DNA from: Tuwongella immobilis
GTDB lineage: Bacteria > Planctomycetota > Planctomycetia > Gemmatales > Gemmataceae
Length of the DNA: 64,000 nt
Assembly (NCBI RefSeq): GCF_901538355.1
Contig: NZ_LR593887.1
Location: 124,001-188,000 of the forward strand
Reading direction: 5' to 3'
The position numbers and the translations under genes are program-made. Below are positions 32,369 through 50,209 of the stretch, piece by piece. The stretch's first letter is position 1. Each line of letters begins with the position of its first letter. The notes under the pieces are model-generated. The model was not told the DNA's origin, did not search any database, and was given only the letters and a program-made list of their open reading frames with translations.

Positions 32369-32950
32369 TTATGCCCGTGGGACTTCCACCGGGAATTGCG
32401 CGAGGGTTTCCGCGACTTTCGCCCGCGCTTCGGGGTAGGGGCCGAGTGCCGCCAGCAGTGCCCCCCAGAATTCGTTCCAGGTGGGATCGCGCAGGCGATT
32501 CACGGTGGCGGTGGGGCGTTCCTGCGGTGGCGCGGTGGTGGTCCAACCGGGGAGATCCGGCAAATCGCGCCCCGGGCCGGACTTCAGCCATGTTTTCGGA
32601 TCGTCTTGAAAGACGTGCAATTCGGCGAAAATTCGGGCTTGGGCAATCGCTTGGCGAATCTCGCTGAGCAATTTGGCGATCAATTTCGGCGGTCGCGGCT
32701 GCTGCGCTCGCGCAAGCCACGCCTCGAAGCGATCGCGTGGCACCCCCGCCGCCTCCGCCGCCATCACCGGAAATCCCCCTTTGCGAATGTACGCGGCAAT
32801 TTGCCGAATCATCTCGTCGGTCAGCCGAATCGTGCGGCCACCGGTCGATCCGGTCGCGGTCGCCGAAGGTGCGCTGCCGCCAGAAGTCGATTGCCGGGTC
32901 GATTGTGGGGCGGATGCGGGCCAGGCGGCAGTAGTGCGTTTGCGAGGCAT
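32369..32950 (-). CDS. Terminase small subunit-like / HTH protein
   Basis: A 193-residue protein, last in the capsid module. The ATG at 32950 is used because GAGG precedes it; an upstream ATG at 32986 would overlap the preceding gene and lacks a site. The first ~45 residues are Ser/Thr/Gly-rich and disordered. Residues about 48-95 form a helix-turn-helix (LTDEMIRQIAAYIRKGGFPVMAAEAAGVPRDRFEAW, read as three helices), like the DNA-binding part of phage terminase small subunits or related packaging initiators. A helical middle (AKLLSEIRQAIAQARIFAELHVF) follows; the end is a Pro-rich region. The position opposite TerL in the operon is unusual, so the TerS role is tentative. Confidence 0.62.
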   Translation of the reverse strand: MPRKRTTAAWPASAPQSTRQSTSGGSAPSATATGSTGGRTIRLTDEMIRQIAAYIRKGGFPVMAAEAAGVPRDRFEAWLARAQQPRPPKLIAKLLSEIRQAIAQARIFAELHVFQDDPKTWLKSGPGRDLPDLPGWTTTAPPQERPTATVNRLRDPTWNEFWGALLAALGPYPEARAKVAETLAQFPVEVPRA

Positions 32951-32960
32951 GAACGGAACC

Positions 32961-34199
32961 TCATCCAGAAAAAGGGGTTGTGCCATTCAGAAGCCAGCGA
33001 GCCAGCGTCGGCGGCATCGCCGGGCCGATGTAGCGAAATCCCGCCGTCAGCCGTTGCGTGGCGTGTCGCAGCATGGGCGTCGGGCGTGGCGATTCGACTC
33101 GAGTCGATGGTGGCCGCGGAGTGGACGTCGGGAGCCGACGCGGACGGGCCATGCTCGGTGCTCGCGTGCAGAGCCAGTGCGGGTGGCGGTATCGCGCAGC
33201 AATCAGCCCCGGATGCGTTGTGGTGCTGGTTGCTCGAAAGCCCAACCCGCGCCACATCCCCGCCAGCGTCCCCGCCATCGCCATGCCCACGCCCACCCCT
33301 TGCCAATCGGGCATCACCACCGTGCGATGCTCGCGCTTCCCGCCTTGCGTGCTGAAGTGGTTAATCCATGCCGAAAAGCCGATCGGTTCGCCGCGATGCA
33401 AGGCCAGAAAGCAGACCGCCGCCGGGTTGATGCGGTGGCTTAAATAATGATGCGGTGCGAAGATCGGCCATGCGGCAGTCGTCGTGCGGACCAAGTCGAT
33501 GGCGATTTGTGGGCGGGGTTGAACCGACCTCCAAACGAACGCCGATTCGCTGCCGACATCGGGCCGATTGCCGCTGTCGGATTCCACGCATTGGGCCAAT
33601 TCCGGTCGAAATCGCCACTCCGGTTGCAACCACGTCTCGACATCCGCGTGACAGGTAATGGCGATGAATCGCATTCGCTGGCGTCGCACGGCTTTGGCGA
33701 TGGCCGCGCTGCCGATTTGCGCCACGGTGCGATCGACCACGCTGGTGAATTCATCGCACACGGCGATGCGGCCCTGCTGCTGAGCGGTGGCCAGCAGGCG
33801 GGCCAAATCCGCGCGAAATCGCTGTCCGGTGGAGAGCGTGTGAGCCGGTTGCAGCCACGCCGGCGGACTGGAAAAGCCCACCGTGGAGAGCCATTCGGTA
33901 ATTTCCCGAATCGCCATGCCGGAGGGGAAGCCGTCCACCACCGCCCGCTGACTGGGCCACGGCGGCAGGTCGTCCATCCAGAGAAAGCCGCGCTCGCTCG
34001 GAAAGCAATGCCGCGCGATGCTCGATTTCCCGCTCCCCGATGTGCCGGTAATCAGGCCGATCGACCAATCACGCTCGCTCAATGGCAACGCCACATCCCA
34101 CACGCGGCGCATCTGCGGCTGTTCCGGCAGGTCAAACAGCCCGCGAAGCTGCGCGACGCGCGGCGTGTCGTCGATGCACGTTTCCAGCACCAGTTGCAT
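32961..34199 (-). CDS. ABC-type ATPase fused to GNAT-like acyltransferase (phage type)
   Basis: A 412-residue protein whose ATG at 34199 overlaps the TGA of the preceding gene (TGATG) and follows GGAGGAAAA, so translation is coupled. The N-terminal half (about 20-210) is an ABC ATPase: Walker A GTSGSGKSS, a signature-like LSTGQRFRADLARLLA, Walker B IAVCDEFTSVVD and a switch His in FIAITCHAD. There are no membrane partners. The C-terminal half (about 255-350) has a GNAT-like core: GFSAWINHF, then EHRTVVMPDWQGVGVGMAMA with the acyl-CoA-binding Q-G-x-G-x-G motif. Such ABC-GNAT fusions are known from phages and are sometimes compared with Mom-type DNA-modifying acyltransferases. The role here is inferred, not shown. 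Confidence 0.8.
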   Translation of the reverse strand: MQLVLETCIDDTPRVAQLRGLFDLPEQPQMRRVWDVALPLSERDWSIGLITGTSGSGKSSIARHCFPSERGFLWMDDLPPWPSQRAVVDGFPSGMAIREITEWLSTVGFSSPPAWLQPAHTLSTGQRFRADLARLLATAQQQGRIAVCDEFTSVVDRTVAQIGSAAIAKAVRRQRMRFIAITCHADVETWLQPEWRFRPELAQCVESDSGNRPDVGSESAFVWRSVQPRPQIAIDLVRTTTAAWPIFAPHHYLSHRINPAAVCFLALHRGEPIGFSAWINHFSTQGGKREHRTVVMPDWQGVGVGMAMAGTLAGMWRGLGFRATSTTTHPGLIAARYRHPHWLCTRAPSMARPRRLPTSTPRPPSTRVESPRPTPMLRHATQRLTAGFRYIGPAMPPTLARWLLNGTTPFSG

Positions 34200-34843
34200 C
34201 AATTTTCCTCCGCGAGACCGAAGCCCAGCAAGGCTTTGGCCGATAATCCCGCCGCCGATAATCGATCCAGCCAGTCGGACTGTTGCGATTCGCTTTCGCA
34301 GGTAATCAGGATCAAAAATTGATCGCGTAGCGGTGGTTGATCGCAATCGGCCTCGCAGTCCGCATCGCGGTCGGAATCGGCGTCAACTGGTGCGCCGATT
34401 GGTGCGCCAACTGGTGCGTCGCAATCGGCGACAACGGCATCGAACAACGCCTGCAAAATGGCGGAATCGGTCTGTGCGGCGGCGTGCAATTCCTGAAGCA
34501 CCGCATCATCTCGTCCCGCCAGTGCCGCCAGCGGATCGACGATGAGCAGCAGTTGCTCCGCTTCTGCATCCGTGACGTCGAGAATCTCGACCATCACCTC
34601 CGCATCGGGCGTCAATTCGCGCCGCAAGTGCCCATCGATGAGTTGCAATTGCCCGTCGGCCCGTTGATAGGCCAGCAGCGATCGCGCCATGCCGATTTCA
34701 TCGTAAACCGCTTGCAGCGATTGCCGTTGCGATGCGGGATGGGTCCGCCAGTTGAGCGGATGCGGGAGCAAATCCCGCGCCTGAACCAAACGATGCTCGC
34801 GGATGCGATTGCGCAGTGGCCGCGCAGAGTGGGCTGTAGTCAT
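34199..34843 (-). CDS. ParB-like N-terminal domain protein
   Basis: A 214-residue protein starting at the ATG at 34843 (AGGAA upstream). Residues about 20-80 follow the ParB/sulfiredoxin-like pattern: VQARDLLPHPLNWRTHP, then DEIGMARSLLAYQRADGQLQLIDGHLRRE, where DGHLRRE corresponds to the G-x-x-R-x-x-A-type nucleotide-binding turn. The rest is acidic with a run of Asp/Ala/Pro (VDADSDRDADCEADCD). Phages often carry ParB-like domains next to DNA-modifying enzymes, where they may act as nucleases or CTP/ATP switches rather than in partition. Overlap with the ABC-GNAT gene argues that the two act together. No HTH typical of true chromosomal ParB is seen. Confidence 0.72.
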   Translation of the reverse strand: MTTAHSARPLRNRIREHRLVQARDLLPHPLNWRTHPASQRQSLQAVYDEIGMARSLLAYQRADGQLQLIDGHLRRELTPDAEVMVEILDVTDAEAEQLLLIVDPLAALAGRDDAVLQELHAAAQTDSAILQALFDAVVADCDAPVGAPIGAPVDADSDRDADCEADCDQPPLRDQFLILITCESESQQSDWLDRLSAAGLSAKALLGFGLAEEN

Positions 34844-34881
34844 GGGATCGTTCCTGGAACATTTCGGGGGATGATTCCCGA

Positions 34882-35229
34882 TCAAACCGGGATAAACGGC
34901 CCGCTGGGACGGCTGGACCGCTTCAGATAGCAGAGTCGTTGGCCCCGATGGCGCACGACGGCCAAGACGACGAATTGCGAGCCGCCCGAATCCGGGACAA
35001 ACAGCAAGTCACCGCCGGTGCCGCCCAGTTCGCCGGTGCCATCGCGGATGTCGGTCATCAACGGCACCAGCAGCGCATGCGACGGCACCAGCACCGTGGG
35101 GCGAAACAGTTGCCCGCGTTCGTACATCTCCAGAATTCGCCCCGAACCAGTGAGATCCGCCGGGGAAGGGGGCATATTTGGCGGCCGATAGACCGCGAAC
35201 GGCATCGGCACCGCATCATTCCAATTCAT
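34882..35229 (-). CDS. Small capsid-module protein
   Basis: A 115-residue protein with the ATG at 35229 and GAGGAA upstream. The sequence is rich in beta-type segments (LLFVPDSGGSQFVVLAVVRHRGQRL) and Pro, with no signal peptide or membrane segment. It lies between the head-tail connector gene and the ParB-like gene, where phages usually encode small head-completion proteins, so a structural head-joining role is a reasonable guess. No family is recognised. Confidence 0.72.
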   Translation of the reverse strand: MNWNDAVPMPFAVYRPPNMPPSPADLTGSGRILEMYERGQLFRPTVLVPSHALLVPLMTDIRDGTGELGGTGGDLLFVPDSGGSQFVVLAVVRHRGQRLCYLKRSSRPSGPFIPV

Positions 35230-35265
35230 GCCGGAATTCCTCGCAACCGATGATGAAATCGACGG

Positions 35266-36093
35266 TTACAACCGATATCGCCGATGCGGAAGCAGCAGCC
35301 GACGCACACTCGATGGCGGCGTCACCGGCGACGAGCTGGGATTGGTCTGCGTCTGGTAAAACAGCGACACCGCCCACTGGGCACAGGCTTCCTGCACATC
35401 CGCCGGCACGGTCGCAAACCCCGCCTCGTAGGTGACGCGATACCGCCCCCGGCCATTGGGCCAGCCGATGCCATCGCTGCCGAGTCGGTATAGCCAGCCG
35501 TTGTTGGCATGCAGTTCCCAATCGTCAACGGGTTCGGTGTGCAGCCGCAGCCCCGCCGGGCGATCGCTGCACGCATACGCCCCGCTGGGTGCGAACAAAT
35601 CGGCGGATGCCCACGATTCGTAGCCGGGCACCACGCTGGCCTGCCACCCCGATCCAATCGCCGAAATCGCCGTAACCAGCGATTCCAAAGTGGGATGCGC
35701 CGACCAGGTGATGGTGTCGTCCAACGTGGTGACACCGCCGCTGATGCGCGTCAATCGCAGGCCAGTGCTGCGAATCGCCACGCTTGCCCGAGTGCCGCCG
35801 CTGCTGCCGCCGCTGCTGCCGCCGCTGGTGTTGCGGATCGATACCACAATGCGCGGATTGGTCATCACGCGCTGCACGGCCAAAATCGGATAATGCCGCA
35901 ACAGCAGCACATCGGTATCCGTGCCATCGAGAACTTCATCGAACGTGGACGACGCAAACGCTTGCCCGCAATACGCTTGGATCGCCGCCGAACAGGAGTG
36001 AATCAACGTCGTCAAGGTGGCCTCATCCGTGGGCGACAGCGTGAAATTGGCCAAATTCGTCTTGGCCCGGTCCAAATCAATCAGGTCGGTCAT
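35266..36093 (-). CDS. Head-tail connector-like protein (HK97 gp6 type)
   Basis: A 275-residue protein; the ATG at 36093 follows GGGAG. The N-terminal ~90 residues resemble phage gp6-like connectors: LDRAKTNLANFTLSPTDEATLTTLIHSCSAAIQAYCGQ is the usual opening helices that place such proteins in the head-tail joining ring, with the characteristic late motif RGRYRVTYEAGFATVPADVQEACAQW (read here in pieces) near the C-terminus. A Gly/Ser spacer (about 95-106) divides the two parts and a larger beta insert with a Trp-rich stretch sits between. Longer than typical gp6. The position directly downstream of small genes after the capsid gene fits the role. Confidence 0.75.
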   Translation of the reverse strand: MTDLIDLDRAKTNLANFTLSPTDEATLTTLIHSCSAAIQAYCGQAFASSTFDEVLDGTDTDVLLLRHYPILAVQRVMTNPRIVVSIRNTSGGSSGGSSGGTRASVAIRSTGLRLTRISGGVTTLDDTITWSAHPTLESLVTAISAIGSGWQASVVPGYESWASADLFAPSGAYACSDRPAGLRLHTEPVDDWELHANNGWLYRLGSDGIGWPNGRGRYRVTYEAGFATVPADVQEACAQWAVSLFYQTQTNPSSSPVTPPSSVRRLLLPHRRYRL

Positions 36094-36152
36094 GGCGTTG
36101 GTTCTCCCAATTCGGCGATTCAAGCATCCATTGCGTGAGGGGTGGGGATCGG

Positions 36153-36665
36153 TCAGATGGCCGCAATCAGGGCGTTCATACTGGTGACATCGACATCCCG
36201 AGCAAATTGCAGTTCCAGCTTGGCCACGCCTTTGGTATCCAGGGTGACGTGGCCGATCGTATCATCTGCGGGCGAAACGACTTCCGTGCGAATGGTGCCA
36301 CTGCCCACGGTGAGCGTGAGCGTGTCGGCAAATCGCGTATCCGCGTCGATGATCGCCCCGGCCAGTCCGCTGGTGGTGCCCAGCGTGGCGGTCAGTTTCG
36401 CCAGCGTGGTGGGAATCCACATCGCCGAGCCGCTGCCCATCTGTAGCCGTCGCCAGCCGAGAATGCGCAGGTGAAACGTGCCGTTTTCGTCGCCATACGC
36501 ATAAGGCACAATGACCACTTGCGATCGCACCTCGCCGGTGATTCGGGTGAGGGTGACCACGCCGTCGCCGGTCGGTTCCGTGAGCGTCGGCCCACGGGTG
36601 GGAAAACTGCTGTCCGCAATCAGCGTGCCCGAGACCGGCACCCATTCCGATGATTCTCGCAACAT
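36153..36665 (-). CDS. Capsid-module protein of unknown function
   Basis: A 170-residue protein with the ATG at 36665 and a strong GGAGGG site. It is beta-rich throughout (VVTLTRITGEVRSQVVIVPYAYG; FHLRILGWRRLQMG; TRFADTLTLTVGSGTIRTEV), with many Thr/Val/Gly, and ends in a helix (VDVTSMNALIAAI). This is the look of small phage structural proteins such as decoration or head-fibre proteins. There are no enzymatic motifs. It lies between the 36710-37219 gene and the connector gene in the same operon, but no family is recognised. Confidence 0.72.
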   Translation of the reverse strand: MLRESSEWVPVSGTLIADSSFPTRGPTLTEPTGDGVVTLTRITGEVRSQVVIVPYAYGDENGTFHLRILGWRRLQMGSGSAMWIPTTLAKLTATLGTTSGLAGAIIDADTRFADTLTLTVGSGTIRTEVVSPADDTIGHVTLDTKGVAKLELQFARDVDVTSMNALIAAI

Positions 36666-36709
36666 GGCCGTTGTTCCCTCCGAATCCAAAGTCGTTCAGG
36701 CAGAACTGG

Positions 36710-37219
36710 TTACGCAATTCCGCTCATCATCTGTTCGGGATCGGCGGCGTAGCGTGGTTCGCTGAGCAGGTACAGCACACAGCCCAGTTGTGCCCCGGTG
36801 CCCACGTCGTTGACCGAGCCGCGAACGTGGGTATAGCCGTTGCTGCTATCCAGCGATTCTGCGGGAATTTCCACCACCCAGATGAGTTCATCTTCCGCGG
36901 AAGTGGTGTTGGTGTACGTGTTTGCAGCGGTTTGCCGAGTCCGAGTCCAGCTGTTGACCGTGGCCAGGTCGCTACCCTGTTTGCGATAGATCGTGTCGAA
37001 CAGCAGCGGCTTGATCGCCGTGCCAGCGGCGTCTTTCGCCTGTTCGATGGTGAGTGTGACATCCTCGCCCGCCGTGCCGCCGTCTTTGAACAGCAGAATC
37101 GCCAGCCGACGATAATGCCGCAGCGACACGAAATCCCCGGTGCGTGCCCCGGCGTTGCTAGTGGCGAAATCGACTGGCAGCAATCCCGAGGCCACTTGCA
37201 GCGTTTCCAAGATGAGCAT
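36710..37219 (-). CDS. Capsid-module structural protein, unknown
   Basis: A 169-residue protein starting at the ATG at 37219 (AAGGA upstream), 44 bases after the major capsid gene. A longer in-frame extension is rejected because it would overlap the capsid gene. The sequence has alternating beta segments (FVSLRHYRRLAILLFKDGG; DVTLTIEQAKDAAG; DELIWVVEIPAESL), with an N-terminal LILETLQVASGLLPVDF. Position after the capsid gene and composition suggest a capsid-decorating or head-stabilising protein, as encoded immediately after the capsid in many HK97-like phages. No specific family is recognised. Confidence 0.76.
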   Translation of the reverse strand: MLILETLQVASGLLPVDFATSNAGARTGDFVSLRHYRRLAILLFKDGGTAGEDVTLTIEQAKDAAGTAIKPLLFDTIYRKQGSDLATVNSWTRTRQTAANTYTNTTSAEDELIWVVEIPAESLDSSNGYTHVRGSVNDVGTGAQLGCVLYLLSEPRYAADPEQMMSGIA

Positions 37220-37263
37220 GATATATCCTTGAATAAAGCGGCCATTGGTGACTTGCGGGTGAC

Positions 37264-38628
37264 TTATGCCCGATTTTGCAGTGTCACAAAGCAGGATTGT
37301 GTCTGCGTGCCCTGATATGGTGTCAACGGGGCGGCCCACCACGGCTGGCCATCCATCCGGAAGATCAACCGGAAGGCGGTTTCGTCGTAATCGAAGCGCA
37401 GGTGCATCGACATTGCCGATTCGACCGCTCCCCGGCTGATGGTGACATACTGCGATAAATCGGCGAGAATCAGATCCCCCGCCGTCCCCAGCGTCGAGCA
37501 CCATTCCACCGGCATCAATGGCCGACCCATCAGCGTCGCATACGGTCGCTCGCTCAGCCCGCCCGGCGGCAGATACACCGGCTGACCGCCCGACCCGACA
37601 TTCATGCGCATTGCCCACAATTGCGGCTCAATGTCTTGGTTGTGGAACCAGACCGCGTTGGGGCGGCACGGGGCATACAGGCGGGACCACATTTTCAGCA
37701 CGTTTTCCGTGGTGATGGTCGCCGCCGCCTGGCCGGATTCCTTCGGCACGGTGATCGTCGCCGGGGCGTTGAGCAGGCCCAGCGGCTGGCCGGTGCCGGT
37801 CCCGCGAATGATCGCATCCCCCACCAGGAAGCGGATTTCATCTCCGCCCACCCGCGACAGATATTGGTCCAAGGCATTCCCCGCCGCATCGGAAAGCAGC
37901 TCATCCGTCACATGAATCAGCACGGCAATTTTGTGCAAACTGAGCCGCAATCGCCCGAAACCCGGCTTGCTGGGAGCAATCGCACCGCCTTCTTCCAGCC
38001 AGTAACCACGCACCCCGCCGTGCCGCGAGCCGTTGGCGCGAGACGATTCGCTACTGCGCGGAAACGTCAGCGTGTTGCCCGCCACCGTGTAGCTGTCTGT
38101 CATCGCCAAAAGCGATGGACCGGAGAGAATCCGCTGGAAAATCCGGCGGGAAAACTCCATCGGCACCAGAAACCCACCGTCGCTGCCCACCGAAGTGCCC
38201 AACCCGCTGGGTGCCTTTGCCATCAGCCGACTGAGGCGATCATCCACCCGGCCCGAGGGGTGACACGCGGATTTCACCGCCTGGGCGAAGTCGCCGAAAT
38301 TCGTAAACCCGCCGCGAGACTCCTCATCCGTCCGCAATGTCGCCGGAATCGGGGCAAACGGCGGCGTGGCTTTCGCCGTGAATGGCCCTGCGCCCGGCAC
38401 CATCGACGGCACGCCAAACGATCCTTGCGGCGCGGCCTGCGGCAAACTCGCCAGCGTTTGTGCAATTGCCGCATCCATCGCCTGGTGAATGCCTTGCGTC
38501 AGCGATTGCATCAGGCCATCGGCGCTGCCCACTCCCGTCCCGCTTCCCGTCATTGGTCCCGTGCTGGCACTCGAAGCCGCCCCGAGATTTGTCGTCGCAT
38601 TCGTCGTCGCATTCGTTGTCATGGTCAT
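37264..38628 (-). CDS. HK97-family phage major capsid protein
   Basis: A 454-residue protein; starts at 38628 (MTMTTNATTN) or 38622 are equally possible. The N-terminal ~130 residues are Thr/Asn/Ser/Gly-rich and serve as a scaffold-like (delta) region that is probably removed by the prohead protease. The fold region shows HK97 hallmarks: GGFLVPMEFSRRIFQRI, the spine-helix part around RLRLSLHKIAVLIHVTDELLSDAAG, FLVGDAIIRGTGTGQPLGLL (P-domain glycine motif) and the C-terminal LRFDYDETAFRLIFRMDGQPWWA. It lies 28 bases downstream of the prohead protease gene, the standard order. Capsid integrity looks good: no stop or frameshift. Confidence 0.93.
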   Translation of the reverse strand: MTMTTNATTNATTNLGAASSASTGPMTGSGTGVGSADGLMQSLTQGIHQAMDAAIAQTLASLPQAAPQGSFGVPSMVPGAGPFTAKATPPFAPIPATLRTDEESRGGFTNFGDFAQAVKSACHPSGRVDDRLSRLMAKAPSGLGTSVGSDGGFLVPMEFSRRIFQRILSGPSLLAMTDSYTVAGNTLTFPRSSESSRANGSRHGGVRGYWLEEGGAIAPSKPGFGRLRLSLHKIAVLIHVTDELLSDAAGNALDQYLSRVGGDEIRFLVGDAIIRGTGTGQPLGLLNAPATITVPKESGQAAATITTENVLKMWSRLYAPCRPNAVWFHNQDIEPQLWAMRMNVGSGGQPVYLPPGGLSERPYATLMGRPLMPVEWCSTLGTAGDLILADLSQYVTISRGAVESAMSMHLRFDYDETAFRLIFRMDGQPWWAAPLTPYQGTQTQSCFVTLQNRA

Positions 38629-38656
38629 GGTCACTCTGGGATGAACGGTCTGCCAC

Positions 38657-39409
38657 TTAGCCACAAAACTGCTGCAATCGTTGCCGGGCAATCTGCTGGC
38701 CGATCGCCGTCCAATTCAGCCGAGCAATCGCCGGGGAATCCGATCCCGAATGGGTCGCAACCGCTGCATTGGTCGATACTTGCGGCGAATCGCCACCCTC
38801 GCATTGCGTCACCACCGCATATGGCTGCACCGGCAGCGCACAGCACGCATATTCCAACAGCAACCAGCGCTCGATTCGGTGCCGAACGCGGGCCAGCCGA
38901 GAATCCGCCCGAATCTCCGCCGCCGACGGCGCACGCACCTGCAACGGCAAAAATCCAATCGATTTCCCCCGCAATAACCCCGCTCGCACCAACTCAAAAC
39001 AGTCGTCCGGTGCCCAACGCGGTGCTGTCCAATCCGCCGGCCGACGCGGATACACCGTCTTCGCCAAGACCCCCCGCCGACCACCCGATTCCCCTACCCG
39101 CCACCACGCCGCATACCCCACTGCCGGCAACGCGTAATCGTGATTCCACGTCACCACCGGATTCACCCGATACTGCGAATCGTCCAACCCGCCCGGCTCC
39201 ACAATGTCCCCCTCCCGGTCCGGCTCCTCCGTCGTAATCCACGATATGTCACCCCGTATGTCAGCATCCACCGCCAATGTCGGCTCCAAAATCGTCATCT
39301 TCCGATACCGATATGCCAAGTCACCCGGAAGCGACTTCATCACCGACTCCACCACCCGCGCAACCCCATCCTCCATCGGAAACCCCAACGGCCCCTCTCC
39401 CCATCCCAT
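38657..39409 (-). CDS. HK97-family prohead protease
   Basis: A 250-residue protein (starts at 39409 or 39376 are both possible). It matches the S78-type prohead maturation protease: DREGDIVEPGGLD and VVTWNHDYALPAVGYA hold the catalytic His, and LLRGKSIGFLPLQV holds the nucleophile Ser in its G-K-S-I-G-F frame. The domain closes at YACCALPVQPYAVV. The protease cuts the N-terminal delta region off the capsid protein during head maturation. It is followed closely by the capsid gene. Its 5' side lies against a fold-back repeat element that separates it from the portal gene, so it may have lost its original shared promoter. Confidence 0.88.
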   Translation of the reverse strand: MGWGEGPLGFPMEDGVARVVESVMKSLPGDLAYRYRKMTILEPTLAVDADIRGDISWITTEEPDREGDIVEPGGLDDSQYRVNPVVTWNHDYALPAVGYAAWWRVGESGGRRGVLAKTVYPRRPADWTAPRWAPDDCFELVRAGLLRGKSIGFLPLQVRAPSAAEIRADSRLARVRHRIERWLLLEYACCALPVQPYAVVTQCEGGDSPQVSTNAAVATHSGSDSPAIARLNWTAIGQQIARQRLQQFCG

Positions 39410-39457
39410 CCCTCACCCCCCCCTATCGTGTGTTGTGTTGGTGTGTGTTGTGTGAGT

Positions 39458-39674
39458 GTGGGACGCTGTCCCACGCCCTGGCCAAGGGAACGTGGTCCCC
39501 TTGGCGAACCCCGTCTTCGCTCCGGTCATTTTCCGAGACAGAATTTGTCTGCGACAAATCCCGCCTCGGAAAATGCTCGTCGCGGTGGGCCACTTGGGCT
39601 TCCCGGCGGGAGACTTTCGCTGGCTGACGCCCCGTTTCGGGCACTCTTCAGCCGACTTTGGCGATGTCGCGGAT
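39458..39674 (+). repeat. Solo half-copy of the fold-back element arm
   Basis: A 217-bp unit beginning with the palindrome GTGGGACGCTGTCCCAC (39458-39474). Next comes a GCCAAGGG/CCCTTGGC hairpin, then a long hairpin opening TTTTCCGAG (39529) and closing CTCGGAAAA (39573). The tail encodes no recognisable product. It has the same orientation as the left arm of the full element that starts 25 bases further on. Confidence 0.88.
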
Positions 39675-39699
39675 TGTGTGTGTTGTGCTGTGTGTGAGT

Positions 39700-40317
39700 G
39701 TGGGACGCTGTCCCACGCCCTGGCCAAGGGAACTGGGTCCCCTTGGCGAACCCCGGTTTCGCTCCGATCATTTTCCGGTGCGATCGATTGACTGGCGTCA
39801 ATGCGCTCACCCCGGAAAATGCTCGTCGCGGTGGGCCACTTGGGCTTCCCGGCGGGAGACTTTCGCTGGCTGACGCCCCGTTTCGGGCACTCCTCAGCCA
39901 CACTCGGTGATGCCGGGGAGGGTGCGATTGGAGGCTGTTTGATCCATCTCCGCGAATTGGCTGTCGATGGAATCGCCACGTGAGAATTCGCTGCCAACCG
40001 CATCTCCATCGGACCATCGGCGATCGTCTCCATTCCGCGACTTGGAACCAAAATCGGCAGCCCGCGTGAGTGATGGATCGAGTCACCCCAATCGGCCAAT
40101 CCGCGACATCGTCGAAGTCGGCTGAGGAGCCGCAGAAATGGGGCGACAGCCAGCGATTGCTCCCCGCCAGCAAGCCCAAAGGTGGCCCCCCGCGACGAGC
40201 ATTTTCCGAGGCGGGATTTGTCGCAGACAAATTCTGTCTCGGAAAATGACCGGAGCGAAGCCGGGGATTGCCAAGGGGACCCAGTTCCCTTGGCCAGGGC
40301 GTGGGACAGCGTCCCAC
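39700..40317. mobile_element. 618-bp fold-back element inside the capsid operon
   Basis: Two inverted arms of about 210 bp (39700-39910 forward; about 40115-40317 reversed) flank a core of about 200 bp. Each outer end is the 17-bp palindrome built on GTGGGAC/GTCCCAC, and each arm holds further nested hairpins. Outside the arms GTGTGAGTG-type words on the left mirror CACTCAC-type words on the right. No transposase is encoded, so movement, if any, would need a helper in trans. It lies between portal and prohead protease. A related element is at 49620-50209. Confidence 0.82.
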
Positions 40318-40410
40318 ACTCATCCACTCCTCCACACTCACTCATCGCACACTCACTCGCCCTCCCACTCCCCCAGCACTGACACCTGCCATTTCCACCT
40401 GCAACGGGGG

Positions 40411-41784
40411 TTAGCTGGAGGAGTCGGGGTTTCGGTTGCGGCCGGTGCGTGGGGCGTAGTCGGGGCGGCGTTGCCAATCGATGGGTGCGTGGGAGAGTGG
40501 GAGCCAGGGGGTAGTGCCCCAGGGGACGGGATCGAGGCCGCGATCGGAGCGGATTTCGTTGATGGTTCGGACGCCTTGGCGGAGGTCGTGGTCTTGTTGT
40601 TGGAGGAGGTAGTCGGCGTTTTCATGGAGTGGGTCATCGCTTTGGAAGAAGAGGTTGCCGGTGGGGTCGAAGCGTGGGACGAGTTGTTCGTTGAGTTTTT
40701 GGTCCCGTCGTTTGAGGCGGGGTCGGATGGCGAGGGATGCGTGGAGGGTTTGGGAGGCTTGCAGGTTGGAGAGGTTGGTTTCTTTGGTGAGCATGGCAAC
40801 GGGGACTCCGAAGGCGTTGGCGATTTCTTCTTTGGTGAATGCTTGTTCGGCGAGCAGGGCGAGATCGCCGAGGGATTGCTGGATGATTTCGACATTGAGT
40901 CCGGATTCGGCGACGAGTGCGCGGCCTTGTCCGCCGTTGCGAAATTTCGCGTTCCATTCCTGTTCGATGCGGTGTCGTTCGCGATCGGAGAGCACTTCGG
41001 CGGGTGAGATAATCACGCCAGGCAGACCGACGTTGCCCCAGATGGCTTGTTTGAAGGCGAGGAAATCGCCGCTGAGGGAGATTTGCTCGAAGACGGCGCG
41101 CAGGGGTGACAATCCGGGACCGTAGGGGTCGCGGGGGTGCGGGTAGCGAAAGGCGATGATTTCGCTGGGCGCAAATTGCTGGGTGGTGGTGCCCACGCGA
41201 TATTCGTAGGCATCGACCAGGGCGGTGGATTCGGGTCGCCGGGTGGGGGTGACCAGGTGGGCGGGCAGTGGCCAGATGGCATCGGGATAGCCGTGCGGGC
41301 CATTTTGGATGAGCCAATAGGCGGTGCCATGAATCTCCTGTTCCAGGGTGGTGAGTTCGAGCAAATCGTGCAGGTTATGCACGGGATTGACGCGGTCGAG
41401 CAGGGTGAGTAGCGGGTGGTCGATGACTTCATCGACGCGATCGGCACGGGTCGCGCGGGCCATGGCTTTGGCGATGGCCGGCGGCAGGGCGCGAGTGGTA
41501 CCACCGCCAGGGAGTTTGCCAGGGAGTTGACCGGAGTGGCTGCCAACGCTGCGGAAAAACAGTCGCGGCGGAAACGCGGCACAGACCGATGCATTGATAC
41601 TCGCGCAGGCGTAGGCCGTGTTCTTCAGTTCGCGGAGCAATTCTTGACTGGTCGGCTCGCGGCGTTTGTTGTGGAATTCGCCGGCCCAGGCGGGGCTACC
41701 CAAGGGCGAACCGGATGGACCGGATGCGGAGCCGAGGCGCGAGCGTCGCCAGGATTGCAGCGTTCGAGAAAGCCACTGTCGCAT
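40411..41784 (-). CDS. HK97-family phage portal protein
   Basis: A 457-residue protein directly downstream of the large terminase gene (12-base gap). The start at 41784 gives a Ser/Arg/Gly-rich leader of ~40 residues. Portal signatures follow: ELKNTAYACASINASVCAAF, DHPLLTLLDRVNPVHNLHDLLELTTLEQEIHGTAYWLI (read in parts), EIIAFRYPHPRDPYGPGLSPLRAV, and the C-terminal clip/crown motif EIANAFGVPVAMLTKETNLSN with RTINEIRSDRGLDPVPWG. The portal is the dodecameric ring through which DNA is packaged. Everything needed seems present. A fold-back element separates its end from the protease gene. Confidence 0.92.
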   Translation of the reverse strand: MRQWLSRTLQSWRRSRLGSASGPSGSPLGSPAWAGEFHNKRREPTSQELLRELKNTAYACASINASVCAAFPPRLFFRSVGSHSGQLPGKLPGGGTTRALPPAIAKAMARATRADRVDEVIDHPLLTLLDRVNPVHNLHDLLELTTLEQEIHGTAYWLIQNGPHGYPDAIWPLPAHLVTPTRRPESTALVDAYEYRVGTTTQQFAPSEIIAFRYPHPRDPYGPGLSPLRAVFEQISLSGDFLAFKQAIWGNVGLPGVIISPAEVLSDRERHRIEQEWNAKFRNGGQGRALVAESGLNVEIIQQSLGDLALLAEQAFTKEEIANAFGVPVAMLTKETNLSNLQASQTLHASLAIRPRLKRRDQKLNEQLVPRFDPTGNLFFQSDDPLHENADYLLQQQDHDLRQGVRTINEIRSDRGLDPVPWGTTPWLPLSHAPIDWQRRPDYAPRTGRNRNPDSSS

Positions 41785-41796
41785 ACGGGTGTCTCC

Positions 41797-43236
41797 TTAC
41801 AGGGGGTGCCAATGGTCGTCGTTCTCGAACGGCGGCGGTTGCTGAAATCGCGTGGGATGATCGGGAGTCGATGTTGGCATCGTGGTCGGGAGTGGTCCCG
41901 GTTCGGTCGCATGCTGCGGTTGTGCGGATTCGGGCAGATCCTCCTGGTCGTTCGGGAAACTTCGGGCGGCATCAGCAACTGCATCGGCATGAGCAGGGGC
42001 ATCGGCATCGGAGTGCGGCGGATGCTGTCGCAGGTAGTGCCGGACAAAATCGACATCCAAGCGGCTGACCAAATAGCGCAGGGCGGCGAGTGCGTGATTG
42101 TCGGCATCCACGGGATTTTCGCCGGGTTGTTCGGGGTCGTAGTGGTAGCGTTGCGACTCGGCCAACAGATTCGGACAGGCGGAGCGATCGATTTTCAGGC
42201 GGCCGGTTTCGATGCGTGCCCGCACGGCGGCAATTCCAGCGGCGATGGCGTTGTTCCCCTTGCGAATGCGAAATCCAGCACGGCGCAAGGCATCAATCGA
42301 TTCGGGGGCAGCAGGATCAGCATACCAGAGAACTCCCTGAAGACTGGGTCCACATAATGCGGCGGCATGCGTGTGGATGCTCTGTTCGCTGGCGTAGCGT
42401 TCGCCGGTGATCCAGAGAACATCGTCTCCGTCGCGGTGGCCCCAGATGGCCGCGAACGGGTTGCGGTAGCCAAAATCGATGCCGCCGAGGGTGGCCGGCA
42501 CGAATTGCGGAACGGGGTCGATGGCGCAGCGGGTGACCATTTCCGGGAAGACCAGCCCGGTTTGGCTCTCGAAGCTGCACTCGTATTCCTGGCGAATCCA
42601 GGCGTCGCCGCAAGCGCGGCGTTCGGCATCAATAAACTCCGGGGTTAATCGCGGGCAGTCGTTCCAGGGGATGCGGATGCGCTGCCAATGGGCGGCGGCA
42701 TCGCTCCAGGCTTGCCAAAACCAGCCGCGTTGCCCAAACGGCGTGGAAATGGCGATCATTGCCCCGCGTGACACGCCCAACATGGGGCGGACGCTGCGAT
42801 ACAGCGAATCGCTGACGCGGGCGGCTTCGTCAATGAGTAGCAATTGCACGCCCTGATAGGCGCGGATCGTCTCTTCCGTGCCCGGAAGTGCGAGAATGCG
42901 GCTGCCATTGGCCAATTCCAGAAGCGATTGCGTCTGTTGAATGGCGGGCACCGGGCGTTCGACTGCCGCGTAGCCTTGGAGAATGTACCGGAATAATTCC
43001 TCGCTTTGCCGTTGGGTGCGGGAGGTCACTAAGACCGTGGAGCGTGGCCGAAATAGGGCATAATGCAAGGCTTTGGCGCTGGCGCAGCGGCTTTTTCCGG
43101 CCCCGCGACTGCAACAAAGCAGGGTGTATCGGGATTCGTCGAGTAAGAATCGCTGCTGCCAGGGGTCGGGCTGCATGCCCTGTGCCCGCAAAATCTCGCA
43201 GGGATCACATGCGAGTGCGAGTGTATCGACGGTCAT
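41797..43236 (-). CDS. Phage terminase large subunit
   Basis: A 479-residue protein; the ATG at 43236 follows AGGGG, which is better than the upstream in-frame start at 43305. The ATPase domain carries a Walker A-like CSRGAGKSR, Walker B LLLIDEAAR and the coupling motif AISTPF. The nuclease domain has acidic residues in GGIDFGYRNPFAAIWG, a middle WYADPAAPESIDAL and the closing VDADNHALAALRYL. Together they package DNA into the head and cut it. The last ~75 residues are Pro/His/Asp-rich and disordered. It leads the operon. The terminase small subunit is not upstream, as is usual; a candidate lies at the far end. Confidence 0.93.
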   Translation of the reverse strand: MTVDTLALACDPCEILRAQGMQPDPWQQRFLLDESRYTLLCCSRGAGKSRCASAKALHYALFRPRSTVLVTSRTQRQSEELFRYILQGYAAVERPVPAIQQTQSLLELANGSRILALPGTEETIRAYQGVQLLLIDEAARVSDSLYRSVRPMLGVSRGAMIAISTPFGQRGWFWQAWSDAAAHWQRIRIPWNDCPRLTPEFIDAERRACGDAWIRQEYECSFESQTGLVFPEMVTRCAIDPVPQFVPATLGGIDFGYRNPFAAIWGHRDGDDVLWITGERYASEQSIHTHAAALCGPSLQGVLWYADPAAPESIDALRRAGFRIRKGNNAIAAGIAAVRARIETGRLKIDRSACPNLLAESQRYHYDPEQPGENPVDADNHALAALRYLVSRLDVDFVRHYLRQHPPHSDADAPAHADAVADAARSFPNDQEDLPESAQPQHATEPGPLPTTMPTSTPDHPTRFQQPPPFENDDHWHPL

Positions 43237-43428
43237 GACGGAACCCCTGGCACGCGATTGGTCCGCTGCCGATCGCCGATTCGAGTCGGTGTCGGCAGTT
43301 GGCATCCATTCACTGTGAACAAATGCACATTCGGTGGTTAGCCCGATTTCGCTAGGGGGCCGACGAAAAAAATTGCGGAATAATCGGCGGAAGTGACGGC
43401 TGCCGAGTCAACGAGGTGGGGAAAAGCA

Positions 43429-49560: not shown

Positions 49561-49619
49561 TCTGCGCGAGTGTGAGTGGGGTGGATCGGGTGTGAGTGGA
49601 GATTGTGGGGATGAGTGGT

Positions 49620-50209
49620 GTGGGACGCTGTCCCACGCCCTGGCCAAGGGACTTGGAAGCCCCTTGGCAATCCCCGTCTTCGCTCCGGTCATTTTCGGGA
49701 CGTTTTTTGACGCTGTCAAAAAGCCGCCCTGAAAATGCTCGTCGCGGGGGCCACTTTGGGCTTTCCGGCAGGGAGCATTCGTTGGCTGACGCCTCTCTTT
49801 GGGCATTCCTCAGCCAGGATGCTCAATGATGCGGAATGGTTATTGGGGTGGATTGATCCCACTCACACGCGGGCTGTCGATTCGGTTTCAATGGATGGAA
49901 TTGGCAGTCGATCGATTCACAATTCTGATGACGAACTCACGTCGGTAGCCCATTTGCAGCAATGGATGAAGGCATCCAATCGCACCATCCGCGACCTCGT
50001 CAAAGTTGGCTGAAGAGTGCCCGAAAAGGGGCGACAGCCAACGAGAGTCCCTCGCCGGTAAGCCCCAGACGTGGCCCCCCGCGAGGAGCATTTATCGGGG
50101 TGAGCGGGGTGACGCAGTCAACCGATCGCCCCGAAAAATGATCGGAGCGAAGCCGGGGATCGCCAAGGGGCTGTCAGTCCCTTGGCCAGGGCGTGGGACA
50201 GCGTCCCAC
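49620..50209. mobile_element. 590-bp fold-back element, second copy
   Basis: Same design as 39700-40317: the end palindrome GTGGGAC-GCT-GTCCCAC at 49620-49636 and its inverse at 50193-50209. Arms of about 200 bp are oppositely oriented around a core of about 170 bp that appears inverted relative to the other element. The inner hairpins differ in sequence from those of the first element but remain paired. It lies between the converging oxidoreductase and DUF1501 genes, where it interrupts nothing. No product is encoded. Confidence 0.82.

What the first reader, a model, noticed from the sequence alone, without database searches (positions are those of the whole stretch)
32369..43236. Tailless capsid-gene module: domesticated phage head or gene-transfer-agent-like system
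One strand holds TerL, portal, prohead protease, major capsid, connector and small head proteins, all without frameshifts, but no tail tube, tape measure, baseplate, lysis, integrase, repressor or replication gene is present. Ordinary flanking genes (membrane operon, YXWGXW gene, tRNA-Lys) lie directly on both sides. A long-lived remnant should have decayed; intact frames suggest selection for heads or DNA packaging.
Basis: partly seen in the sequence, partly recalled or inferred. Interest (0 to 1): 0.7.

Follow-up and report, generated by a model that had tools for sequence, protein, structure and literature searches.

The report
Tail-less phage-head module kept in chromosome
A planctomycete chromosome carries an intact set of genes for building and filling a virus head, but no tail, and relatives across its family keep the same genes under selection and sometimes scattered, which suggests that bacteria have adopted a tail-less DNA-packaging device.

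Summary
Eleven minus-strand ORFs (32369-43305) encode TerS, an ABC-ATPase/GNAT protein, a ParB-like protein, head completion, connector, two small proteins, capsid, protease, portal and TerL, all open, with no tail, integrase or replication gene. 'Domesticated' is well supported for the family, less so for this genome. A third of 95 family genomes carry this 'type A' module, usually once. Its distances track rpoB, dN/dS is 0.06-0.24 in close pairs, and the genes stay intact even where packaging and capsid halves lie apart (46 kb on one contig in one genome). Another third carry a different tail-less module ('type B'), fixed in place and without a terminase in Gemmata-like genomes; no genome has both. 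Against a simple GTA story: this genome falls inside the type B clade, the module changes address between close species, and metagenomic contigs hold the same tail-less head genes with an integrase and a Prim-Pol/helicase. Best reading: the head-and-packaging half of a tail-less, capsid-encoding integrative element (like a capsid-forming satellite), now host-resident and selected. Tail source and cargo are unknown; no particle has been shown.

The parts
41797..43305 (-). TerL, terminase large subunit (likely start 43236)
   Evidence: phrog_7579 3.6e-55; ATPase and nuclease columns kept in a 20-row alignment
40411..41784 (-). portal protein
   Evidence: PF04860 1.2e-45; phrog_2662
39439..40341 (.). 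palindromic repeat array filling the portal-protease gap
   Evidence: 141-nt inverted arms, 96% complementary, plus direct copies
38657..39409 (-). prohead protease (by position and relatives)
   Evidence: 40-53% identity to the gene between portal and capsid in family relatives; no Pfam hit
37264..38691 (-). HK97-type major capsid protein
   Evidence: PF05065 2.3e-41
36710..37219 (-). p169, conserved beta-rich small protein after the capsid gene (head decoration guessed)
   Evidence: homologues in relatives and in tailed prophages of the class; AlphaFold pLDDT 73, matches uncharacterised phage proteins
36153..36689 (-). p178, orphan protein
   Evidence: no homologue in any fetched locus other than its own; fold not predicted, pLDDT 35
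35266..36123 (-). head-tail connector/adaptor
   Evidence: phrog_442 8.9e-27
34882..35229 (-). small head-completion-type protein (assigned by position)
   Evidence: homologues after the connector in relatives; no library hit
34199..34885 (-). ParB-like protein
   Evidence: phrog_498, phrog_620
32961..34346 (-). ABC-ATPase plus GNAT protein
   Evidence: phrog_11143 3e-85; similar proteins in named phages, beside a ParB-like gene in Gordonia phages
32369..32986 (-). TerS, terminase small subunit
   Evidence: phrog_4102 5.7e-9

Best explanation
The locus is the head-and-packaging half of a tail-less, capsid-encoding integrative element that became a resident of Gemmataceae-type chromosomes and is kept by selection. 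Mechanism: capsid and portal assemble a prohead, the protease matures it, TerS/TerL pump DNA in through the portal, and connector and completion proteins close it (inferred from gene families). Without its own integrase or replication genes it would package host DNA or another element's DNA, and delivery would need a tail supplied in trans, for example by a resident tailed prophage (inferred; this genome has one near 4.33 Mb). Shown: gene content, intact frames, purifying selection in relatives, co-divergence with rpoB, dispersal with retention, existence of integrase-bearing tail-less relatives. Not shown: particles, cargo, tail, transfer.
For: Gene content. Type A portal in 33 of 95 family genomes (41-65% identity; G003, G004 and G096 are fragments), type B portal in 33 of 95, overlap 0 (my sorting of the table). 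Distances against corrected rpoB: ABC/GNAT r 0.87 (16 genomes), connector 0.86 (23), ParB-like 0.86 (17), protease 0.79 (28), portal 0.73 (27), TerL 0.60 (28), p169 0.56 (23), capsid 0.43 (29), all Mantel p 0.001. The TerL+portal+protease tree repeats the rpoB clades. dN/dS in the six closest pairs per gene: TerL 0.13-0.16, portal 0.06-0.20, protease 0.10-0.24, capsid 0.06-0.21. Packaging and capsid genes apart: about 46 kb on one contig in G096; about 11 kb on one contig in G110; different contigs, both away from ends, in G012, G022, G023, G026, G029, G094, G097. G012, G094 and G096 share the neighbours of the capsid half. 22 of 35 type A genomes have TerL, portal, protease and capsid at 90% or more of the profile; several of the 13 shortfalls are contig ends. 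Element-bearing tail-less relatives. Module GC3 0.64-0.76 against 0.72 +/- 0.03 for other window genes.
Against: The window genome lies in the type B clade, and with viral contigs in the tree its TerL+portal join two metagenomic contigs, so its copy may be horizontal. G082 and G083 have about 90% identical modules at unrelated addresses although about ten genes beside one of them stay syntenic between the two genomes. Some genomes lost or broke it: G016, G092 and most of genus g19 gave no portal match; the portal is interrupted in G084, split in G104 and truncated in G003. Low dN/dS and rpoB congruence would also arise in a host-restricted element that is still mobile. Splits across contigs could be binning errors, except in G096 and G110.
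Confidence: 0.5

Rival explanations
1. Still a selfish tail-stealing satellite (capsid-forming satellite type): the module packages itself, takes tails from a helper phage, and is moved by an integrase or recombinase supplied in trans or recently lost.
For: Head, terminase and connector set without tail is the published cf-PICI pattern (PMC10690885, passages). Related contigs carry a tyrosine integrase (L534, L536) or a large serine integrase (L289, L542), or Prim-Pol/AAA_25 (L295, L328), beside the same head genes. Different addresses in G082 and G083. A tailed prophage is present in this genome.
Against: No tyrosine integrase in any of 68 chromosomal loci searched; the two weak serine-recombinase hits sit at an insertion inside the portal (L101) and at a truncated portal (L104). 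In nine genomes the genes are not contiguous, so they could not be packaged as one unit. No HNH gene here, no attachment repeat. Clear tape-measure hits in only 2 of 33 type A genomes, G000 and G023.
Confidence: 0.25
2. An ordinary defective prophage remnant whose frames have not yet decayed.
For: Intact frames alone are compatible with recent acquisition; the window genome is the only type A carrier inside the type B clade; several relatives have broken or partial copies. Time since arrival is unmeasured.
Against: Same gene set in about a third of 95 family genomes, dN/dS far below 1, codon GC3 equal to neighbours, a repeat array inside the module. Against the nearest contig (L245, 64-66% identity in TerL and portal) dN/dS is from below 0.10 to 0.22, though dS is near saturation.
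Confidence: 0.15
3. Heads used inside the cell or released without tails (storage compartment, DNA or protein container, or transfer by vesicles or lysis).
For: No recognisable tail companion in most type A genomes. Type B keeps portal, protease, capsid and connector without a nearby TerL in 16 of 16 loci, which fits a use other than DNA transfer.
Against: Type A keeps TerL with its motif columns, TerS and connectors, which serve DNA packaging and tail attachment. No example known to me of such a use for a portal-bearing HK97 head.
Confidence: 0.1

Closest known systems
Capsid-forming PICIs (cf-PICI)
   Same: Own capsid, protease, portal, connectors, TerS and TerL; no tail genes
   Different: Here no integrase, no HNH, no replication gene; genes dispersed in several relatives; family-wide co-divergence with the host; sequence kinship to cf-PICIs was not tested
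MulchRoom/MiniFlayer satellites of Streptomyces phages
   Same: Encode capsid and packaging genes; no tail homologues found in the tailed-virion case (MulchRoom)
   Different: Virion-producing, tied to virulent helpers; direct terminal repeats; host of another phylum
Gene transfer agents (RcGTA, BaGTA, BhGTA)
   Same: Phage-derived, endogenised, sometimes at multiple loci, vertically inherited, intact frames
   Different: Known GTAs have tails; packaging of random DNA and delivery not shown here
Tailed planctomycete-type phages and prophages (L037/L038, L547-L549)
   Same: Related capsid (50%) and p169 (L037/L038), or TerL, portal, capsid, p169 and connector in the same order (L547-L549)
   Different: They carry tail or tape-measure-type genes after the head genes

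Membership tests
Gene transfer agent (criteria of PMC9662315, Introduction read) | Caudoviricete-derived proteins | tested here: met
   PHROG/Pfam hits
Gene transfer agent (criteria of PMC9662315, Introduction read) | Forms caudovirion-like particles | not testable with these tools
   No particle data; no tail gene at the locus
Gene transfer agent (criteria of PMC9662315, Introduction read) | Fully endogenised, often at multiple loci | tested here: met
   One locus here; several loci in G012, G022, G023, G026, G029, G094, G096, G097
Gene transfer agent (criteria of PMC9662315, Introduction read) | Vertical inheritance, congruence with host phylogeny | tested here: inconclusive
   Met for the family; the window genome is out of place in the rpoB tree
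Gene transfer agent (criteria of PMC9662315, Introduction read) | Packages random host DNA, cannot package own genome, delivers DNA | not testable with these tools
   Needs purified particles
Capsid-forming PICI (definition in PMC10690885, passage) | Own capsid, protease, portal, connectors, TerS, TerL | tested here: met
   protease by position
Capsid-forming PICI (definition in PMC10690885, passage) | HNH endonuclease with the packaging genes | tested here: not met
   No HNH hit in the window; found in 15 of 90 viral loci
Capsid-forming PICI (definition in PMC10690885, passage) | Integrase and mobility | tested here: not met
   None among module proteins or tested neighbours; no match of four related integrases in the window
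Capsid-forming PICI (definition in PMC10690885, passage) | Uses helper tails | not testable with these tools
   A tailed prophage exists in the genome; no link shown
Complete temperate tailed phage | Tail, lysis, integrase and replication genes | tested here: not met
   None at the locus

The most novel reading that the evidence does not exclude
A whole bacterial family has adopted tail-less phage heads, in two mutually exclusive versions (A with terminase, B without), as a stable cellular DNA-packaging or container device: the first GTA-like or compartment system built from heads alone, descended from tail-less capsid-bearing integrative elements.
Probability: 0.25. Interest if true: 0.88.

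Novelty: new variant of a known kind. Interest (0 to 1): 0.62.

Why it matters
Known GTAs have tails, and known capsid-forming satellites are mobile. A head-only set kept by selection across a family, scattered but intact, would link the two and show that a satellite's capsid half can be taken over by its host. It is testable in cultured members: look for DNase-resistant particles and for the phenotype of a terL or capsid deletion.

Tried and rejected
The first scan of genome contigs with the capsid alone found nothing; a portal alignment did better. The first rpoB comparison and tree were spoiled because my longest-ORF rule picked antisense frames for some genomes; redone with rpoB-matched frames, and only those are used. 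I first took TerL of G084 as separated from its portal; one search shows a contig break, so G084 is not counted as a split. G013 and G101 were not counted either, since a contig break could explain them. A shared address between this module and type B was considered: the two genes left of TerS (30880, 31963) match (54% and 47%) a pair beside type B in G069, but the methyltransferase that marks the type B address lies at 2.56 Mb in this genome, so this stays a hint. Insertion at tRNA-Lys was rejected. Fold of p178 failed. Fold of p169 matched uncharacterised phage proteins (PDB none at E 0.001). Gene calls come from a codon-usage script of my own; they failed on two very GC-rich records (G504, G502), which are not used for statements on gene content. 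The dN/dS figures are pairwise NG86 for the closest six pairs per gene; TerS (up to 0.52) is saturated and not used. Tape measure was searched with two models only; PF10145 missed the prophage tape measure of this genome, so absence of tails elsewhere is not proven. In one search at most three candidates per genome were scored. Paper searches gave no listing that describes this feature; 'Gemmataceae' plus 'phage portal protein' returned 0 papers. Papers seen: PMC9662315 (passages and Introduction), PMC10690885, PMC11389934 and PMC12987554 (passages), the rest as search listings. Subscription papers, including the original cf-PICI paper, were not seen. The name Tuwongella immobilis is a recall from genome size alone.
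Full report
OBSERVATION. The window is G000:C1:124001-188000 of a single 6,690,754-base contig. On the minus strand, from 43305 down to 32369, lie TerL, portal, protease, capsid, p169, p178, connector, a small head-completion-type protein, a ParB-like protein, an ABC-ATPase/GNAT protein and TerS, all open. No integrase, tail, lysis or replication gene is among them, and the tested neighbours are housekeeping or unassigned. In 20 TerL sequences, the window's included, the nuclease motif positions are conserved, and the ATPase motif is kept where the start of the protein was called (motif names recalled). The portal-protease gap is filled by a palindromic repeat array.

DISTRIBUTION. A portal search of 95 family genomes matched 70. 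Sorting that table by hand, 33 genomes carry a type A portal (41-65% identity, fragments in G003, G004 and G096) and 33 a type B portal (29-32% identity, from about residue 116 on). No genome has both. TerL of type A (about 49-57% over full length) is in the same genomes; type B genomes gave only shorter or more distant TerL matches or none. In 392 genomes drawn from the phylum the best TerL outside the family is 36% over more than half the query, with one 52% partial match; only up to three candidates per genome were scored. A profile of type A capsids found it once, with an open frame, in nearly all type A carriers; G017 has two and G036 a second, weaker one.

DISPERSAL WITH RETENTION. In G096 the capsid gene ends at C101:66464 and TerL starts at C101:112172, about 46 kb apart on one contig. 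In G110 they lie about 11 kb apart on one contig. In G012, G022, G023, G026, G029, G094 and G097 packaging and capsid genes are on different contigs, both away from ends; a binning error cannot be excluded for these seven. In G012, G094 and G096 the capsid half has the same neighbours on the TerS side. Of 35 type A genomes examined, 22 have TerL, portal, protease and capsid at 90% or more of the profile in one frame; the other 13 are listed, several cut by contig ends, and G003, G084 and G104 with truncated, interrupted or split portals.

SELECTION AND INHERITANCE. Pairwise dN/dS of the six closest pairs per gene is 0.13-0.16 (TerL), 0.06-0.20 (portal), 0.10-0.24 (protease) and 0.06-0.21 (capsid); type B gives 0.05-0.11 (portal) and 0.02-0.13 (capsid). 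Distances correlate with rpoB distances at r 0.43-0.87, all Mantel p 0.001 (capsid lowest). The TerL+portal+protease tree repeats rpoB clades. Against strict fixity: G082 and G083 modules are about 90% identical but lie at unrelated addresses, although about ten genes beside one of them are syntenic between the two genomes. The window genome is nested in the type B clade of the rpoB tree, next to G005.

TYPE B. In 16 of 16 type B loci examined no TerL was found with the type A TerL profile at E 1 or by clustering. In 12 of 16 the same methyltransferase gene lies beside the module, and in 7 of those the genes on the other side (an ECF sigma factor and two more) also match. This is a second tail-less head set, apparently vertically kept in Gemmata-like genomes. 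A terminase of another family elsewhere in those genomes was not searched for.

MOBILE RELATIVES. IMG/VR gave 76 loci for the portal, 62 of them at 45-62% identity. Of ten longer records searched with one tape-measure model, only G501 (portal 37%) matched, and it looks like a tailed phage with the head genes in the same order. G500 (35.6 kb) and G503 (49.5 kb) carry the type A head genes with a tyrosine integrase and AAA_25 or AAA_24 proteins, and I saw no tail gene in them. L289 and G505 (same record) carry a large serine integrase, and L295 and L328 a Prim-Pol/AAA_25 fusion near TerL. In 68 chromosomal loci no such tyrosine integrase was found; in 90 viral loci 3 had one, 2 a serine integrase, 11 the Prim-Pol/AAA protein and 15 the HNH protein (some viral loci overlap the same record). 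In a TerL+portal tree element-bearing contigs and chromosomal copies are interspersed, and the window copy joins L245 and L247 (quick tree). L245 looks chromosomal by its neighbour; L247 has an HNH-like match and a TerS-like gene before TerL.

MECHANISM. Head assembly and packaging are inferred from gene families. TerS, TerL, connector and completion proteins argue for DNA-filled, closed heads able to take a tail. I saw no tail gene with the module in chromosomal relatives. Tape-measure models hit clearly in only two type A genomes, G000 and G023, so a resident helper is not a constant companion as far as these two models can tell. This genome has a separate tailed prophage with TerL, portal, capsid and a tape-measure hit.

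COMPARISON. By the GTA criteria of PMC9662315 (Introduction read) phage-derived proteins and endogenisation are met, vertical inheritance is met for the family but not clear for this genome, and packaging and delivery are untested. By the cf-PICI description in PMC10690885 (passages) the head and packaging set is met, HNH and integrase are not. That paper says that integrase-less satellites in chromosomes likely point to inactivated ones, which is the main published alternative. So the locus is filed under neither; it works most like the head half of a capsid-forming satellite, kept like a GTA.

VERDICT. A real, intact, tail-less head-and-packaging module with family-wide relatives under selection. 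New variant of a known kind. Confidence 0.5 in host-resident, selected use; 0.25 in a still selfish satellite; 0.15 in a plain remnant; 0.1 in a non-transfer use of heads.

Noticed in passing
L047, L048, L107, L109, L113-L115 (Gemmata-like genomes): Second tail-less head module (type B): portal, protease, capsid, small beta protein, connector, no nearby TerL, at a conserved chromosomal address beside a methyltransferase and an ECF sigma gene.
   Followed up: partly
L105:8516-19777 and L106:1-5141 (G000:C1, about 4.326-4.343 Mb): A tailed prophage in the same genome with TerL, portal, capsid and a 1127-aa protein matching tape-measure PHROGs.
   Followed up: partly
L534/L535 (IMG/VR record of 35.6 kb) and L536-L538 (49.5 kb): Integrase-bearing contigs with type A head genes and no visible tail genes; candidate new satellites or tail-less viruses.
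   Followed up: partly
L101:872-13926 (G084): A 13 kb insertion with a large serine recombinase gene interrupts the portal gene; portal residues 270-283 of the query match on both sides.
   Followed up: partly
L104, near 1984-2440 (G003): Portal gene truncated at a place where a serine-recombinase match lies.
   Followed up: no
L136, L138, L139: A second TerL class beside an AAA-type protein, without a portal, in type A genomes.
   Followed up: no
L489-L523 and others: Many Chloroflexi, Dehalococcoidia and SAR202 genomes hold a portal about 24-31% identical; possibly another widespread resident module.
   Followed up: no
window:39439-40341 and about 49596-50091: Palindromic repeat sequence in the portal-protease gap; translated ORFs suggest a similar copy near 49.6-50.1 kb.
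   Followed up: no
window:3470-8353: A 1258-aa ORF beside small ORFs that look WXG100-like by eye (type VII secretion-like); not tested.
   Followed up: no
window:30880-32352: Two-gene membrane operon next to TerS matches a pair lying beside the type B module in G069 (L109:12732-14104).
   Followed up: partly
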